DNA of 51,818 nt from Bacilli bacterium (GTDB lineage Bacteria; Bacillota_I; Bacilli_A; RF39; UBA660): the NCBI GenBank assembly GCA_017435485.1, contig JAFSEY010000007.1:1-51818 (forward strand). Direction: 5' to 3'. Shown here one piece after another: positions 19,131 to 25,630 of the stretch. Under the pieces are notes generated by a model, which saw only the letters and a program-made list of their open reading frames with translations, was not told the origin of the DNA and made no database searches. Position numbers and translations under genes: made by a program. Position 1 is the stretch's first letter; every line of letters starts with the position of its first letter.

Positions 19131-20555
19131 TTAGTATTGGATACCCCAAATAACATGCTTAGTCGCCTCTTTACCGCAACATACGCACTTACCATCTACT
19201 AACGGATCATTTTCCATGATACATCTAGATTTACAGCCACGAATTTCTTTTATTTTTAATTCGCAAGCTTCATCTCCACACCAATCACCATGAATAAATC
19301 CTGGTTGAGTATTTAATATTTTTTCCATATCTTCTAAATTATGAGCTGTAAATGTTAAAGCATCTCTTCTTTCAACCGCTCTTTTATACATATCATTTTG
19401 AATAGTTTCTAATAATTCTTGTACATATCCTACTACATCAATATCTTTAGACTCAATTATCTTTTCTCTAGTATCTCGTCTAGCAAAAGTTATTTTATTA
19501 TTTTCTAAATCCCTTTTCCCAATTTCAATTCGTACAGGAATACCATTTACTTCAGATTCTGCAAACTTAAATCCTGGTGATTTATCAGTTAAATCAACAT
19601 AACAAGCTATATTTGCTTCTTTTAACTTAGTAGCATATTCATTAGATAAATTAACTATTTCATCATCTTTTCCTATCGGAATAATCACAACTTGCTTAGG
19701 AGCAATTCTTGGTGGCAAAACTAATCCATAATCATCACTATGAACCATAATTAATGCCCCGATCATTCTCGTCGTAGTTCCCCAAGATGTTTGGTAAATA
19801 TACTCTTGCTTATTTTCTTTATTTAAAAATTTAACGTCATAAGCTTCAGCAAATTTTTGACCAAAATAATGGCTTGTACCATCCTGTAATGCAACTCCAT
19901 TATACATCAAAGCTTCATTAGTTAATGTATATTCAGCACCAGCAAACTTTTCTTTTTCTGTTTTAATACCAGTTATTGAAGGAATTGCTAAAATTTCATG
20001 GTGAAACCATTTATAAACTTCCATCATTTGATCAGTTTCTCTAACAGCTTCTTCTTTTGTACTATGAATAGTATGACCCTCTTGCCATAATATTTCTCTA
20101 CTTCTTAAAAACGGTCTAGTTTCTTTTTCCCATCTTAAAACATTACACCATTGATTATATAATTTTGGTAAATCACGATAAGATTTAACATGATCTTTAT
20201 AATAATCACAAAACATTGTTTCACTAGTTGGGCGAATACATAATCTTTCTTCTAATTCTTTAGCACCACCATGAGTAACCCAGGCCACTTCTGGGGCAAA
20301 ACCCTCAACTAATTCCGATTCTTTTTTTAATAAACTCTCAGGTATTAATAAAGGTAATTGTACATTAACGTGTCCCAATTCTTTAAACTTTTTATCTAAG
20401 ATTTCTTGCATTTTTTCCCAAATTGCATATCCGTTTGGTTCAATTACAGTACACCCTTTTACAGACGAATAAGCAGCTAGGCTAGCAGCGCTTACAACAT
20501 CCGTATACCACTTAGCAAAATCAACATCTCTACTAGTAATAGCATTATTTTTCAT
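19131..20555 (-). CDS. proS: Prolyl-tRNA synthetase, archaeal/eukaryotic-like type
   Basis: A 474-residue class II synthetase that charges tRNA-Pro. It is the short form without the editing insertion, with a C-terminal zinc-binding-like region: cysteines at Trp-Cys-Gly-Asp-Glu-Ala-Cys, Gly-Cys-Lys-Ser-Arg-Cys and Cys-Val-Cys-Cys-Gly. It ends in the Gly-Ile-Gln-Tyr C-terminus typical of this type. Class II motif 2 is seen as Arg-Trp-Glu-Lys-Glu-Thr-Arg-Pro-Phe-Leu-Arg. The long bacterial form (about 570 residues) next to rseP is the Bacillus arrangement, so this may be a replacement. The start has GAGGTG. No T-box is visible upstream. Confidence 0.93.
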   Translation of the reverse strand: MKNNAITSRDVDFAKWYTDVVSAASLAAYSSVKGCTVIEPNGYAIWEKMQEILDKKFKELGHVNVQLPLLIPESLLKKESELVEGFAPEVAWVTHGGAKELEERLCIRPTSETMFCDYYKDHVKSYRDLPKLYNQWCNVLRWEKETRPFLRSREILWQEGHTIHSTKEEAVRETDQMMEVYKWFHHEILAIPSITGIKTEKEKFAGAEYTLTNEALMYNGVALQDGTSHYFGQKFAEAYDVKFLNKENKQEYIYQTSWGTTTRMIGALIMVHSDDYGLVLPPRIAPKQVVIIPIGKDDEIVNLSNEYATKLKEANIACYVDLTDKSPGFKFAESEVNGIPVRIEIGKRDLENNKITFARRDTREKIIESKDIDVVGYVQELLETIQNDMYKRAVERRDALTFTAHNLEDMEKILNTQPGFIHGDWCGDEACELKIKEIRGCKSRCIMENDPLVDGKCVCCGKEATKHVIWGIQY

Positions 20556-20587: not shown

Positions 20588-20690
20588 TAATAAAAATCAA
20601 AATTAAATCCAAAAAGATAATAATAATCTTCTTTTAAACACTTTACAATGTTATACAAATTTATTATTTGTATTTGAGATACAACAACAT

Positions 20691-20794
20691 AAAAACACAC
20701 CTTTATAAAGTGTGTTTAAGTATCATTTGGTGCCCTTTTGGTGGAAGTATAATAACCACAAGGTAAATTTCATAGGTAGTAATAACTACTAACT
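20691..20794 (-). ncRNA. Candidate small RNA (about 100 nt)
   Basis: On the minus strand, a TATAAT box at 20801-20806 is followed by about 100 bases with no open frame. This ends in a strong terminator: AAACACACTTTATAAAG paired with GTGTGTTT, one bulge, then TTTTTA. Inside are a GTAGT-TATT-ACTAC hairpin and a TTGTGG/CCACCAA stem. It lies between proS and the 20.9-kb gene. The alternative is that it is only the 3' untranslated region and terminator of that gene. This is an inference from promoter, structure and terminator alone. Confidence 0.35.
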
Positions 20795-20800
20795 AGTTAA

Positions 20801-20831
20801 ATTATACTACAAATTTAGTAAAATGCATCAA
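20801..20831 (-). promoter_or_regulatory. Possible promoter of the candidate small RNA
   Basis: TTGATG, 19 bases, TATAAT on the minus strand. The spacing is two bases longer than ideal. Confidence 0.35.
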
Positions 20832-20872
20832 AAATTATAAAAGATTTTTTATAAAACATAAAACTAAATTAT

Positions 20873-21403
20873 TTACTTTTTTAAAGTAGCATTATCTCCA
20901 AATAAATTACCTAATTCATCAAAATGCTTAATATTAAGTGAATTTAACAGTTCAAGATACAATTGAACAGAAAATTGTTCGTTTGAATTTTTTACTGACA
21001 TTTCACAAACTTCTTTTATTTTTTCATAATCATCCCGAGTTATATTAATATTTAAATAACTAACAGGGTCACTTGTAGCATTATCTTTGATTGTAACACC
21101 AAATTTGTATGTTTCATTATCTTGTATATAACCACCAAATCTTATTTCTGAAGAATTTGGACCAAAAAAATTTACAATAAATTTTTCGGGAAATGTTTCT
21201 GTATTTGATTGAATTATTGTAAATGAAGCAATATGTTTCGCAACAACACTAAATCTAAAAGTGTCAGTATTATTAATATTTACTATTTCTTGTGTTGGGG
21301 CTGGATACCTAGAAATTACGGTACGTTTTTCTATAGGAGAATTGACAACCGTTTCTTGTATCGCAGCGTATTTACCTAATAAAAATCTATTATTTTCTTC
21401 CAT
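20873..21403 (-). CDS. Unknown protein, divergent partner of the CheD-like gene
   Basis: I do not recognise this 176-residue protein. It has no signal peptide or membrane helix. Residues about 40-125 alternate short hydrophobic strands (Phe-Arg-Phe-Ser-Val-Val, Phe-Ile-Val-Asn-Phe-Phe-Gly, Tyr-Lys-Phe-Gly-Val-Thr-Ile) and look like a beta-sandwich. The last 50 residues look helical. ATG 21403 has AAGGAA upstream. It is divergent from the CheD-like gene across about 180 bases with an inverted repeat, and both lie between rseP/tRNA-Arg and proS, a position often without extra genes in Bacillus relatives. It is probably accessory. Confidence 0.65.
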   Translation of the reverse strand: MEENNRFLLGKYAAIQETVVNSPIEKRTVISRYPAPTQEIVNINNTDTFRFSVVAKHIASFTIIQSNTETFPEKFIVNFFGPNSSEIRFGGYIQDNETYKFGVTIKDNATSDPVSYLNINITRDDYEKIKEVCEMSVKNSNEQFSVQLYLELLNSLNIKHFDELGNLFGDNATLKK

Positions 21404-21522
21404 ATTTTTTTCCTTTCTTCTTAATCCATTGATAATAATATCTTTTTGAATTAATATATCTAAGTCAATTAGATCATAAATTTCCGCTTCATTAATTTAT
21501 TTTTGATTAAATATTAAAAAAA

Positions 21523-21540
21523 ATAACAAATTAATGTTAT
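21523..21540. promoter_or_regulatory. Inverted repeat in the divergent intergenic region
   Basis: ATAACA, 6 bases, TGTTAT: a perfect 6-bp inverted repeat that overlaps a TATAAT box (21538-21543) upstream of the CheD-like gene. It is a possible operator. A second TATAAT lies at 21553-21558. The remainder of 21404-21584 is AT-rich without a gene. Confidence 0.3.
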
Positions 21541-21584
21541 AATAAAGATAGATATAATGTATTATGTGAAGGCGAGGTAATATA

Positions 21585-22148
21585 ATGAAAGATTATATTA
21601 ATAGCGGAAATAAAATCAATATTGATCAACAAATTTTGTCTATATTAAATGAAATAACAAGACATGTTGCTACCGCCGAAATGAATGAATTTATAATATC
21701 TGACAGTAATAAAAATATAATAGGAACTGTTGGATTAGCAGTTTGTGATGGAATAATTTTTTATGATAGGAAAAACAAATGGGGAATTGTTGGACACGCT
21801 GCTGGTGATAATAAAATAGCATTACTTTCAGATATGTTAAAAACATTACCAATCGATAAAGATATAGTTATAGAATATGCAATAGTTACTGGATATGATA
21901 ATATACGAAACGGCAATTACACCGATACAAATAAAATGTTAGAATATTTAAAAAATAATTGTCCTGAAAATATCAAATTAATACCATTTCAAACTGATTT
22001 AGGAATTAGAGTTGGACAAAGTTATAGTAATGAATTTTACTTTGATGTTAAAAGCGGTAAAACTGCCAGTCAAATTTTAAATTATTATGATTATTTAGAT
22101 TTTTCTTCTTTTAATGACAAATTAAATAATAAAGGTATTTCAAAATAA
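21585..22148 (+). CDS. CheD-like (glutamine deamidase fold) protein outside a chemotaxis locus
   Basis: The 187 residues contain a stretch that parallels CheD. Thr-Val-Gly-Leu-Ala-Val-Cys (about residues 50-56) matches CheD Thr-Leu-Gly-Leu-Gly-Ser-Cys, with Thr and Cys in the same register. The His of Ile-Val-Gly-His comes exactly 17 residues after the Cys, as in Thermotoga CheD as I recall it. Later segments (an Ile-Val-Thr-Gly-Tyr strand, a helix with Asn-Lys-Met-Leu-Glu, then a Leu-Gly-Ile-Arg-Val strand) keep the order of the CheD fold. CheD deamidates receptor glutamines; here no chemotaxis gene is near, so the substrate is unknown. AGGCGAGG precedes ATG. The deamidase assignment is inferred from motif and spacing. 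Confidence 0.6.
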   Translation: MKDYINSGNKINIDQQILSILNEITRHVATAEMNEFIISDSNKNIIGTVGLAVCDGIIFYDRKNKWGIVGHAAGDNKIALLSDMLKTLPIDKDIVIEYAIVTGYDNIRNGNYTDTNKMLEYLKNNCPENIKLIPFQTDLGIRVGQSYSNEFYFDVKSGKTASQILNYYDYLDFSSFNDKLNNKGISK

Positions 22149-22165
22149 AAATTTCACCTAAAAAA

Positions 22166-22323
22166 CATAATTTTGCTTGGCTTTATGCCTTGCTAAAATT
22201 ATGCTTAAAAGGGTTTAAAAAAGGAATTTCCCTTTTTCACACCGTTATTTCTGCCAATAGCGTAGTGTGTTACTAAAATGTCATTTTAGTTGATTTGAAG
22301 TTATTATAAATAACTCTTTTTTT
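22166..22323 (+). ncRNA. Candidate structured RNA with five consecutive hairpins
   Basis: Just after the CheD-like gene five hairpins follow each other. H1 at 22166-22203 is CATAATTTT/AAAATTATG extended by GC and GGC/GCC pairs. H2 at 22207-22236 is AAAAGGG/CCCTTTT. H3 at 22238-22269 is CACAC/GTGTG plus CGTTATT/AATAGCG with a TA bulge. H4 at 22273-22289 is CTAAAAT/ATTTTAG. H5 at 22299-22323 is AGTTAT/ATAACT followed by T7, a terminator. No open frame fits. The region is richer in paired G and C than its surroundings. It may be a stand-alone RNA or a structured 3' untranslated region; H2 alone could be the gene's terminator. Confidence 0.4.
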
Positions 22324-22330
22324 GTATTTT

Positions 22331-22359
22331 AAAACTCGAACTTCAAATAGTTCGAGTTT
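22331..22359 (-). terminator. Hairpin after tRNA-Arg
   Basis: A perfect 11-bp stem, AAACTCGAACT with AGTTCGAGTTT, and a 6-base loop, just beyond the 3' end of tRNA-Arg. The T-run on the minus strand is short (TTTT). Confidence 0.55.
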
Positions 22360-22369
22360 CCTATCAATC

Positions 22370-22446
22370 TGGTGTCCTCAGGCAGATTCGAACTGCCGGC
22401 CTATTGCGTCGGAGGCAACCACTCTATCCAACTGAGCTATGAGGAC
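22370..22446 (-). tRNA. tRNA-Arg (CCG)
   Basis: Acceptor GTCCTCA/TGAGGAC, anticodon stem GTTGC/GCAAT with loop CTCCGAC (anticodon CCG), T-loop TTCGAAT, CCA encoded. It lies 27 bases after rseP on the same strand. The accessory island begins beyond its 3' end, the side where elements that use tRNA genes as targets insert. Confidence 0.95.
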
Positions 22447-22473: not shown

Positions 22474-23532
22474 TTATTTTATAAATAGATTTAAAATATC
22501 TCGATACGTAATATATATCATTAAAGCCATTAATAGCAAGAAACCAATCGTATGAAAAGCATTTTCAATTTTAGCATTAATTGGACTTCCCTTAATCTTT
22601 TCAATAATAATAAATAATACTCTTCCACCATCAAATGCTGGGAATGGTAACACATTTATGAATCCAACATTTATTGATAAGAAAGCGATTAGATAAATAA
22701 TGTACGAAATACCTAACTTAGCCCCTTGATCAACTACTTGATAAATTCCTACCGGTCCTGATAATGAATTTAGAGAAATCTTTCCTGTAAATAATCCTTT
22801 AATAGTTAATTTCATTGAATCAAAGACACTACCAAATTTAGCAAATGCAAATTTTAAACTAGATATAAACCCTTTTTCTATTTTTGTATCAACCGAGAAT
22901 CCAAAAACCATTCTTTCTTCGCCAGTTTCAGCATCAGCTTCTTTTATTGGAGATACTTTAATTGTATCAGTAGTACCATCTTCTCGTAATACTTCAAATT
23001 CTGTATAATTTTTATTATTTTTATAAACCAAAACTAATTGAGCTGCATCCCATGACGAAACTTTTTGTCCATTTATTTTAATGATTTCATCACCAGCTTT
23101 TAAACCTGCTTGAGCAGCTGGATAATTTTCTAAAACTTCTCCTATAATCGGTTCAGTAGGTGTAGCTCCCCAAATTAAAGCATATACAAATAATAAAACT
23201 AACGCTAAAATAAAATTATTTATAACTCCTGCAAGCAATATCATTGTTCTAGCATACCAAGGTTTATTACACATCAAATCTTCTTTTTTTACTTTATCAT
23301 CATCAGCATAAACTTCTCCAGCCATTGAAACAAATCCGCCAATTGGAAAAGCTCTTATACTATAATCTATTTTATCTTTTCCTTTTTTCGAAAATATTTT
23401 TGGACCCATTCCAATCGAAAATTCATAAATATGTACTTTAAAAATCTTTGCCCAAATAAAGTGTCCAAATTCATGAACTAAAACAATAATTCCAAGAATT
23501 AAAACAAATAATAATAATGTTACAATCCACAT
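22474..23532 (-). CDS. rseP: Site-2 zinc metalloprotease RseP
   Basis: This intramembrane protease cleaves membrane-bound regulators such as anti-sigma factors and leftover signal peptides. The 352 residues have the zinc motif His-Glu-Phe-Gly-His in the first helix (residues 20-24), a PDZ domain (about 130-200, with Ala-Gly-Leu-Lys-Ala-Gly-Asp-Glu-Ile), and the third zinc ligand region Asn-Val-Leu-Pro-Phe-Pro-Ala-Phe-Asp-Gly-Gly, where Phe replaces the usual Leu before Asp-Gly-Gly. GGAGG precedes ATG. It is 11 bases after cdsA, the usual cdsA-rseP pair. Confidence 0.94.
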   Translation of the reverse strand: MWIVTLLLFVLILGIIVLVHEFGHFIWAKIFKVHIYEFSIGMGPKIFSKKGKDKIDYSIRAFPIGGFVSMAGEVYADDDKVKKEDLMCNKPWYARTMILLAGVINNFILALVLLFVYALIWGATPTEPIIGEVLENYPAAQAGLKAGDEIIKINGQKVSSWDAAQLVLVYKNNKNYTEFEVLREDGTTDTIKVSPIKEADAETGEERMVFGFSVDTKIEKGFISSLKFAFAKFGSVFDSMKLTIKGLFTGKISLNSLSGPVGIYQVVDQGAKLGISYIIYLIAFLSINVGFINVLPFPAFDGGRVLFIIIEKIKGSPINAKIENAFHTIGFLLLMALMIYITYRDILNLFIK

Positions 23533-25096: not shown

Positions 25097-25630
25097 CTAA
25101 TCTAAGAAATTTTCGTTTATATCATCAATATTGCCATCAACATCGTTATCTGCAATATATTCTTCAATAACCTCGTATTCATCTTCATCTTCTTCTACAC
25201 TTACTTTTAATTTAGTGTCTCCAACAATTTCTACACCCAGTTCTTTTTCAACATTAAGATTTACAAGACCATCTGCTATTTTCACATCAGTCACAGTTGG
25301 TTGTTTTAAACTTCGCACAATAATTTCCGATGCATTAGTTAAATTAGCATTATCTTTTAACCTTACATTCATTTGGTCACTATAATTAAATCTTTGAGTA
25401 CTAACTGATGTTTTTGTATCATTGTCATAAGAATACCAGACATTTATATCAAAGCTACCATTTAATAAAACACTACCATTATTATTATGCCCATTAAAAG
25501 TATGATTAATTACCCAACAGCCTAAAACTGTATTTGGCACCTCTTCTGTTTTCAAGCTATAATCATTATGGCTTATTTTTTTGGCTTTTCCCACCACAGC
25601 TTTGGTTACTATTTCTTTATAATTAGCCAT
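25097..25630 (-). CDS. cotE: Outer spore coat morphogenetic protein CotE
   Basis: The 177 residues align in order with Bacillus CotE. The start Tyr-Lys-Glu-Ile-Val-Thr-Lys-Ala-Val-Val matches Tyr-Arg-Glu-Ile-Ile-Thr-Lys-Ala-Val-Val. It also shares Leu-Gly-x-Trp-x-Ile-Asn-His, Asp-Ile-Asn-Val-Trp-Tyr-Ser-Tyr, Thr-Lys-Thr, an Arg-Leu-Lys-Asp-Asn segment, Gln-Pro-Thr and Val-Val/Ile-Val-Gly-Asp/Glu-Thr-Lys. The very acidic tail ends in Asp-Asp-Ile-Asn-Glu-Asn-Phe-Leu. CotE directs outer coat assembly in the mother cell, so this implies sporulation or recent loss of it. GAGGAGG precedes ATG, with a sigma-K-like promoter upstream. Confidence 0.9.
   Translation of the reverse strand: MANYKEIVTKAVVGKAKKISHNDYSLKTEEVPNTVLGCWVINHTFNGHNNNGSVLLNGSFDINVWYSYDNDTKTSVSTQRFNYSDQMNVRLKDNANLTNASEIIVRSLKQPTVTDVKIADGLVNLNVEKELGVEIVGDTKLKVSVEEDEDEYEVIEEYIADNDVDGNIDDINENFLD

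What the first reader, a model, noticed from the sequence alone, without database searches (positions are those of the whole stretch)
20600..22446. CheD-like Thr/Cys/His protein in a non-chemotaxis island beside tRNA-Arg
Seen: the gene at 21585-22148 has Thr-x-Gly-Leu-x-x-Cys and a His 17 residues after the Cys, in the same register as the CheD catalytic triad, with matching strand order afterwards. Known: CheD deamidates chemoreceptor glutamines, and the same fold occurs in bacterial toxins such as CNF and BLF1. Inference: here it sits in a small accessory segment between rseP/tRNA-Arg and proS, divergent from an unknown beta-rich protein and followed by a structured RNA. It may modify a different target, in a self-regulating or conflict system.
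Basis: partly seen in the sequence, partly recalled or inferred. Interest (0 to 1): 0.65.

Follow-up and report, generated by a model that had tools for sequence, protein, structure and literature searches.

The report
Orphan CheD-like enzyme beside mobile oriT
A small gut-type bacterium that appears to lack chemotaxis receptors carries a gene for a CheD/NTAN1-type enzyme (predicted to strip amide groups from proteins) next to a degenerate transfer origin of a mobilizable element, so the enzyme is probably travelling cargo with a non-chemotaxis target rather than part of a chemotaxis pathway.

Summary
The 187-aa protein (21585-22148) has Thr48, Cys54 and His71 in CheD register. Its predicted structure (pLDDT 81) matches CheD and human NTAN1 best (Z about 11), PgeF/YfiH next (7-8.5), and the toxins CNF1 and BLF1 weakly (4.4-4.7). 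It scores below the curated CheD and NTAN1 cut-offs, is sparse (about 18 of 385 genomes of its order) and was seen only in one family of small-genome uncultured Bacilli. Its genome shows no chemoreceptors and no canonical CheD. Selection is purifying (dN/dS 0.29).

Two inferences change. The divergent 'partner' gene is not conserved. The 'structured RNA' is two features: a tRNA terminator (22326-22369) and an oriT-like DNA repeat (22161-22290) with the exact MOBV1 nick sequence TAGTGTG/TTA and an IR1/IR3-like hairpin. The repeat core occurs in 49 of 365 genomes (reversed pattern: none) and often faces MOBV relaxase genes. The closest homologue (86% aa, another genus) is followed by this oriT and a MOBV remnant.

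Best reading: an orphan CheD/NTAN1-like amidohydrolase, probably a deamidase of an unknown intracellular protein, carried as cargo of a relaxase-less mobilizable element or remnant at a tRNA-Arg hotspot. Activity and substrate are untested.

The parts
21585..22148 (+). CheD/NTAN1-fold orphan cysteine amidohydrolase, 187 aa; predicted triad Thr48/Cys54/His71
   Evidence: ORF; triad conserved; AF2 pLDDT 81, pTM 0.76; CheD 2F9Z Z 11.1, NTAN1 Z 11; dN/dS 0.29 against the L011 homologue
21518..21584 (+). conserved upstream region of the gene, with a TATAAT-like box at about 21544
   Evidence: DNA homology with L011 starts at 21518; alignment; the box is by eye
22161..22290 (+). MOBV-type oriT-like repeat (hairpin array), degenerate copy lacking GGC of the inner hairpin
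   Evidence: interspersed repeat, up to 95% identical, in relatives; exact core in 49 of 365 genomes, 0 for the reversed control pattern
22243..22262 (+). IR1-like inner hairpin CGTTATT...AATAGCG
   Evidence: architecture compared with pMV158 oriT (PMC5863519)
22238..22269 (+). IR3-like outer stem CACAC/GTGTG with TA bulge; predicted nick between 22269 and 22270 (TAGTGTG/TTA)
   Evidence: exact 10-mer at 22263-22272, expected 0.15 per window; MOBV1 nick site from PMC5090054
22272..22290 (+). hairpin immediately 3' of the nick (ACTAAAAT...ATTTTAGT), kept by compensatory changes in many relatives
   Evidence: helix 2: 5 of 8 pairs with changes on both sides, 75.9% of cells paired
22326..22369 (-). 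intrinsic terminator/3' trailer of tRNA-Arg, a conserved type found 3' of many tRNAs in the family
   Evidence: 14 of 20 fetched matches lie directly 3' of a predicted tRNA gene, as does the own-genome tmRNA copy
22370..22446 (-). tRNA-Arg (CCG), likely integration hotspot
   Evidence: in G007 an integrase-like ORF directly follows the same tRNA; in same-genus G160 ackA follows it
20873..21403 (-). divergent 176-aa ORF of unknown function, not a conserved partner
   Evidence: no Pfam family above cut-off, no NCBIfam or PHROG match; no phage or plasmid match; absent from L064; AF2 without alignment uninformative, pLDDT 40

Best explanation
[quoted passage not shown] It most likely uses Cys54 as nucleophile, His71 as base and Thr48 as orienting residue to hydrolyse a side-chain (or N-terminal) amide of an intracellular protein that is not a chemoreceptor. 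The gene is cargo of a mobilizable element. It sits directly upstream of a MOBV-type transfer origin, next to tRNA-Arg, in an element that here lacks its own relaxase and would be mobilized in trans, or is a remnant. Shown computationally: fold, conserved triad, purifying selection, absence of MCP domains, oriT sequence and structure, MOBV linkage of this oriT in relatives. Inferred: deamidase chemistry, protein substrate, cargo status and actual mobility of this copy.
For: Triad and fold; NCBIfam CheD PRK13490 touched by 10 of 19 members, best 1.5e-5, and the XopAK effector model by 6, best 5.7e-5; Pfam N_Asn_amidohyd by 6, best 6.3e-4; CheD chain 2F9Z is the top profile hit in the PDB, E 0.026. 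No MCP and no PF03975 CheD in the genome, with positive controls. Selection: dN/dS 0.29, and 0.13-0.22 in relatives. Mobility: 87.7% DNA identity over 773 nt with G353, another genus; 86% aa against a maximum of 79% and a median of 44% for 13 other matched proteins; L064 has gene, oriT, then MOBV C-terminus remnant (77% over 31 aa, E 4e-9); L133 from the same genome shows cargo, oriT, MOBV-like relaxase ORF and recombinase-like ORF. oriT: exact nick sequence, 24 of 27 repeat copies carry it and 0 occur in 111 kb of background; MOBV gene or remnant within about 1.5 kb in 11 of 27 copies, against 1 in 46 background loci; hairpin covariation.
Against: No activity data. The window protein is below the curated cut-offs for CheD and NTAN1. 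Many homologues sit at ordinary chromosomal loci without an oriT nearby (for example next to mfd-like and SpoVT-like ORFs in L114 and L116), so mobility is not general to the family. The window copy of the oriT has lost GGC from the inner hairpin, no relaxase or direct repeats of the tRNA end were found, and the only MOBV relaxase found in the genome is a different subtype without this oriT core nearby. The G353 contig is 3.6 kb of a MAG and could be misbinned.
Confidence: 0.6

Rival explanations
1. An NTAN1-like N-terminal asparagine/glutamine amidase, i.e. part of a bacterial N-degron-type control, rather than an internal-glutamine deamidase.
For: Top Foldseek hits are NTAN1 (E 6.5e-7 against 8.6e-5 for CheD); Pfam N_Asn_amidohyd is the Pfam model most members touch (6 of 19). 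Two homologues lie next to a peptide deformylase-like ORF (L020 and L064).
Against: CheD and NTAN1 tie on VIA-align Z (11.1 and 11.1). The C-terminal region that gives NTAN1 its Nt-Asn specificity (PMC7022378) is missing from the short protein. NCBIfam CheD models score better (1.5e-5). Deformylase neighbours were noticed in only two loci.
Confidence: 0.2
2. A conflict or effector enzyme (CNF1/BLF1/XopAK-like) that modifies proteins of a competitor, phage or mobile element.
For: Sparse, horizontally moving gene beside an oriT; the NCBIfam XopAK effector model touches 6 of 19 members.
Against: The predicted single-domain protein matches CNF1 and BLF1 only at Z 4.4-4.7. No conserved immunity-like neighbour: contexts differ between loci and the divergent ORF is not conserved. 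No match in phage or plasmid collections. Some lineages keep it at housekeeping loci. PADLOC was not scanned.
Confidence: 0.12
3. A relocated or residual true CheD serving a chemotaxis system in the missing part of the genome.
For: The strongest family-model matches are to CheD; the genome is 94% complete, so some genes may be missing.
Against: No MCP signalling domain and no canonical CheD in the genome. The protein is below the CheD cut-off and has an extra N-terminal helix. CheA, CheC and flagellar genes were not searched separately.
Confidence: 0.04
4. The hairpin repeat is a single-strand origin (sso) or a transcription terminator, not an oriT.
For: It contains TAGCGT, identical to the CS-6 motif of plasmid ssos (PMC4598088); in ICEBs1 an sso lies just downstream of the relaxase gene (PMC4595007), as here; the pMV158 oriT overlaps the mobM promoters (PMC5863519), whereas this repeat usually faces the mob 3' end.
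Against: The exact 10-nt MOBV1 nick sequence stands at the 3' base of an IR3-like stem, as in pMV158. TAGCG lies in the stem, not a loop, and varies to TATCG in several copies while the nick motif is kept.
Confidence: 0.2

Closest known systems
CheD chemoreceptor glutamine deamidase (PF03975; Thermotoga maritima 2F9Z chain C)
   Same: fold (Z 11.1, 120 residues, rmsd 3.2), Thr/Cys/His register, same order of motifs around T-x-G-L-x-x-C
   Different: 16% identity; below curated cut-offs; N-terminal helix and longer C-terminus; no MCP in the genome
NTAN1 N-terminal asparagine amidohydrolase (PF14736; 6A0E)
   Same: fold (Z about 11, best Foldseek E), Cys-His spacing
   Different: Thr instead of Ser; lacks the appended C-terminal specificity region; 187 against about 300 residues
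PgeF/YfiH (PF02578)
   Same: same superfamily fold (Z 7-8.5)
   Different: separate family: ORFs of about 230-255 aa in relatives that the profile touches weakly
CNF1 and BLF1 toxin deamidases, XopAK effector
   Same: CNF1 and BLF1: superfamily fold; XopAK: weak profile match only
   Different: much weaker structural match (Z 4.4-4.7 for CNF1 and BLF1); no delivery domain seen here
MOBV1 oriT of pMV158 and IMESag-rpsI
   Same: nick site TAGTGTG/TTA (pMV158), inner hairpin 7 nt upstream (8 nt in pMV158), outer stem with bulge ending at the nick, linkage to Mob_Pre relaxases in relatives
   Different: usually lies at the 3' side of mob, facing it; the window copy lacks GGC of the inner hairpin and has no adjacent relaxase; other hairpin sequence

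Membership tests
CNF1/YfiH-like cysteine hydrolase superfamily | alpha-beta-beta sandwich fold | tested here: met
   AF2 model pLDDT 81, pTM 0.76; only superfamily members among the clear hits
CNF1/YfiH-like cysteine hydrolase superfamily | conserved Cys and His with Ser/Thr or equivalent | tested here: met
   C54 and H71 in 19 of 19, Thr in 16 of 19; distances in the model were not measured
CheD (PF03975 and NCBIfam CheD) | score above curated cut-off | tested here: not met
   window protein 15.3 bits against a cut-off of 251 for PRK13490; no PF03975 match in the genome
CheD (PF03975 and NCBIfam CheD) | chemotaxis context (MCP substrates) | tested here: not met
   no MCPsignal in the 94% complete genome, positive controls ring; CheA and CheC not searched
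CheD (PF03975 and NCBIfam CheD) | Thr/Cys/His triad at -6, 0, +17 | tested here: met
   T48, C54, H71; CheD Thr21/Cys27/His44
CheD (PF03975 and NCBIfam CheD) | deamidation of glutamine in a receptor | not testable with these tools
   needs biochemistry
NTAN1 (PF14736) | score above curated cut-off | tested here: not met
   15.8 bits against 24
NTAN1 (PF14736) | appended C-terminal region covering the active site | tested here: not met
   the protein ends at 187 aa with a low-confidence tail after the core; NTAN1 chains are about 305 aa
CNF1/BLF1-type toxin | close structural match and delivery apparatus | tested here: inconclusive
   Z 4.4-4.7; no delivery domain in family scans, but signal peptides were not predicted
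MOBV oriT | nick sequence TAGTGTG/TTA | tested here: met
   exact at 22263-22272; literature site
MOBV oriT | IR1/IR3 hairpins placed 5' of the nick | tested here: met
   layout as in PMC5863519; shortened in the window copy
MOBV oriT | adjacent MOBV relaxase gene | tested here: not met
   none in the window; met in 11 of 27 related copies, so this copy is an orphan or remnant
MOBV oriT | location upstream of mob | tested here: not met
   in relatives it usually lies at the mob 3' side
MOBV oriT | nicking by cognate relaxase | not testable with these tools
   needs in vitro assay

The most novel reading that the evidence does not exclude
A previously undescribed family of stand-alone protein deamidases, spread in part by oriT-only mobilizable cassettes, that regulates or attacks an intracellular non-chemotaxis protein in near-minimal Bacilli.
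Probability: 0.3. Interest if true: 0.72.

Novelty: new variant of a known kind. Interest (0 to 1): 0.5.

Why it matters
From general knowledge, bacterial members of this fold are known mainly from chemotaxis (CheD), cell-wall editing (PgeF) and toxins. A stand-alone family under purifying selection in reduced genomes, in the one tested here without any chemoreceptor, and moving with a transfer origin in at least one case, gives a tractable route to a new intracellular deamidation target. The oriT repeat also offers a handle for recognising mobilizable elements in a large group of uncultured Bacilli, where 35 of 112 sampled genera carry its exact core.

Tried and rejected
Conserved divergent gene pair: rejected. 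Rfam RNA: no match at gathering or relaxed threshold. Phage or plasmid origin of the protein: no tblastn match in the phage and plasmid collections with a homologue as query, no confirmed locus in viral contigs. Repeat in named plasmids or phages: only a 32-nt chance-level match. First idea that the repeat is a single-strand origin (TAGCGT): demoted after the MOBV nick-site match. Weak profile hits removed after reading the ORFs: long PgeF/YfiH-like proteins (L023, L028, L029, L031), a cell-surface repeat protein region (L024) and an RlmN-like radical SAM protein (L030). Attachment-site direct repeats of the tRNA-Arg end: none over 10 nt. ProS as a divergence yardstick between G000 and G353: only distant matches, so other window proteins were used. 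A fold search of the divergent ORF was not run because its model is poor.

Full report
What was checked. The ORF at 21585-22148 encodes 187 aa with T48, C54 and H71. CheD uses Thr21/Cys27/His44 and NTAN1 Ser69/Cys75/His92 (PMC7022378), i.e. the same spacing. Single-sequence scans are weak: Pfam N_Asn_amidohyd E 0.008, NCBIfam CheD E 0.015. Homologues make it firm: across 19 members Cys and His are invariant and Thr is kept in 16; ten members touch the CheD model PRK13490 (best 1.5e-5), six XopAK (best 5.7e-5) and six the NTAN1 model (best 6.3e-4). The window protein itself is below the curated CheD and NTAN1 cut-offs.

Structure. With 13 sequences AlphaFold2 gives pLDDT 81 and pTM 0.76. Foldseek finds NTAN1 (E 6.5e-7) and T. 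maritima CheD (8.6e-5); VIA-align gives Z 11.1 for CheD, 11.1 for NTAN1, 8.5 for YfiH, 4.7 for CNF1 and 4.4 for BLF1. The model adds an N-terminal helix and a poorly predicted C-terminal tail. Triad distances were not measured because coordinates were not on hand.

Distribution. The single-sequence search finds 5 of 291 family genomes. The profile search finds 24 of 385 in the order at E 1e-3; after reading the ORFs and removing PgeF-like, surface-repeat and RlmN-like hits, about 18 remain, divergent subgroups included. In a class-wide draw only three genomes, all of the same family, match. A scan of 84,980 species gave 12 loci, all from uncultured Bacilli, Mollicutes, Tenericutes or unnamed-bacterium records. 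The own genome (1.09 Mb, 94% complete) has no MCP signalling domain and no PF03975 CheD, with positive controls. dN/dS is 0.29 between the window gene and its closest homologue and 0.13-0.22 among three others.

Context. Neighbours differ between loci. The divergent 176-aa ORF has no credible homologue (one E 2.5e-4 match to a longer DHH-like protein) and is absent beside the 86% homologue (L064). In same-genus G160 rseP and tRNA-Arg are followed by ackA with no such genes; in G007 a 365-aa ORF that looks like a tyrosine integrase by eye follows the same tRNA. The locus is therefore a plausible integration hotspot, but no att repeats were found.

The 'structured RNA'. DNA homology between the window and G353 (another genus) runs from 21518 to 22290 at 87.7%. 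The 3' part is an interspersed repeat. One search's tally of 180 genomes mixes it with a second feature, 22326-22369, which is a tRNA terminator type: 14 of 20 fetched copies lie directly 3' of a predicted tRNA. The repeat core, CACACCGTTATTGGCTYTGCCAATAGCGTAGTGTGTTAC, contains TAGTGTG/TTA, the MOBV1 nick site (PMC5090054), at the base of an outer stem around an inner hairpin, like IR3/IR1 of pMV158 (PMC5863519). The 10-mer occurs once in the window (expected 0.15; that figure alone is weak), in 24 of 27 repeat copies and not in 111 kb of background. Those 27 copies were chosen by similarity to this repeat, so the count shows conservation rather than independent discovery. The exact 18-nt core is in 49 of 365 genomes and 35 of 112 genera, with no hit for the reversed pattern among the genomes listed. 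Hairpin pairing is 88% of cells, with three measures above all 500 shuffles and two borderline.

Linkage to mobility. A MOBV relaxase gene or remnant lies within about 1.5 kb in 11 of 27 copies, against 1 of 46 background loci; one such protein scores PF01076 2e-29 and one neighbouring recombinase PF00239 2e-33. In L064 the CheD-like gene is followed by the oriT and 31 codons of a MOBV C-terminus with one stop. L133, from the same genome, shows cargo, oriT, MOBV-like ORF and recombinase-like ORF (assigned by sequence resemblance, no family scan). The CheD-like pair is 86% identical although 13 other matched proteins have a median of 44% and a maximum of 79%; those are best matches, not proven orthologues. 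The own genome holds one MOBV relaxase of another subtype without this oriT core nearby.

Mechanism and limits. The most likely chemistry is thiol-based amide hydrolysis; the most likely substrate class is a protein Gln or Asn that is not in a chemoreceptor. This rests on superfamily knowledge, not on any assay. Cargo status rests on two loci (the window and a short MAG contig) plus the oriT. The window oriT lacks three bases of the inner hairpin and has no relaxase, so present-day mobility is uncertain. An NTAN1-like N-terminal amidase and a conflict enzyme remain open rivals. The taxonomic name of the host family was not established. The literature searches found no description of this family or repeat, but only open-licence papers were searched.

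Noticed in passing
22326-22369 and L160-L179: A conserved intrinsic terminator type (GATTGATA...ACTCGAAC...GTTCGAGT) recurs 3' of many different tRNA genes and the tmRNA across this bacterial family, up to 95% identical between genera.
   Followed up: partly
L041 and L079 (own genome contig C2, about 23030-23186): A second copy of the oriT-like repeat lies directly 3' of the tmRNA gene, in the same arrangement as at tRNA-Arg.
   Followed up: partly
L018, L019, L020 (genus g97): In one genus the CheD-like gene is followed by a 304-aa AAA+ ATPase ORF on the same strand, with desulfoferrodoxin-like or deformylase-like ORFs upstream.
   Followed up: no
L025, L027: Divergent CheD-like members (Val at the Thr position) lie next to ORFs resembling class I glutamine amidotransferases (gamma-glutamyl hydrolase type).
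   Followed up: no
25097-25630 (-): A CotE outer spore coat protein (PF10628, E 5e-47) in a genome of only about 1.1 Mb.
   Followed up: no
19131-20555 (-) and L131: The window genome has a 474-aa ProS, while G353 of the same family gives only distant matches to it, so the two appear to carry different ProS types.
   Followed up: no
L084: In G007 a 365-aa integrase-like ORF sits convergent to and directly 3' of the tRNA-Arg (CCG) that follows rseP.
   Followed up: partly
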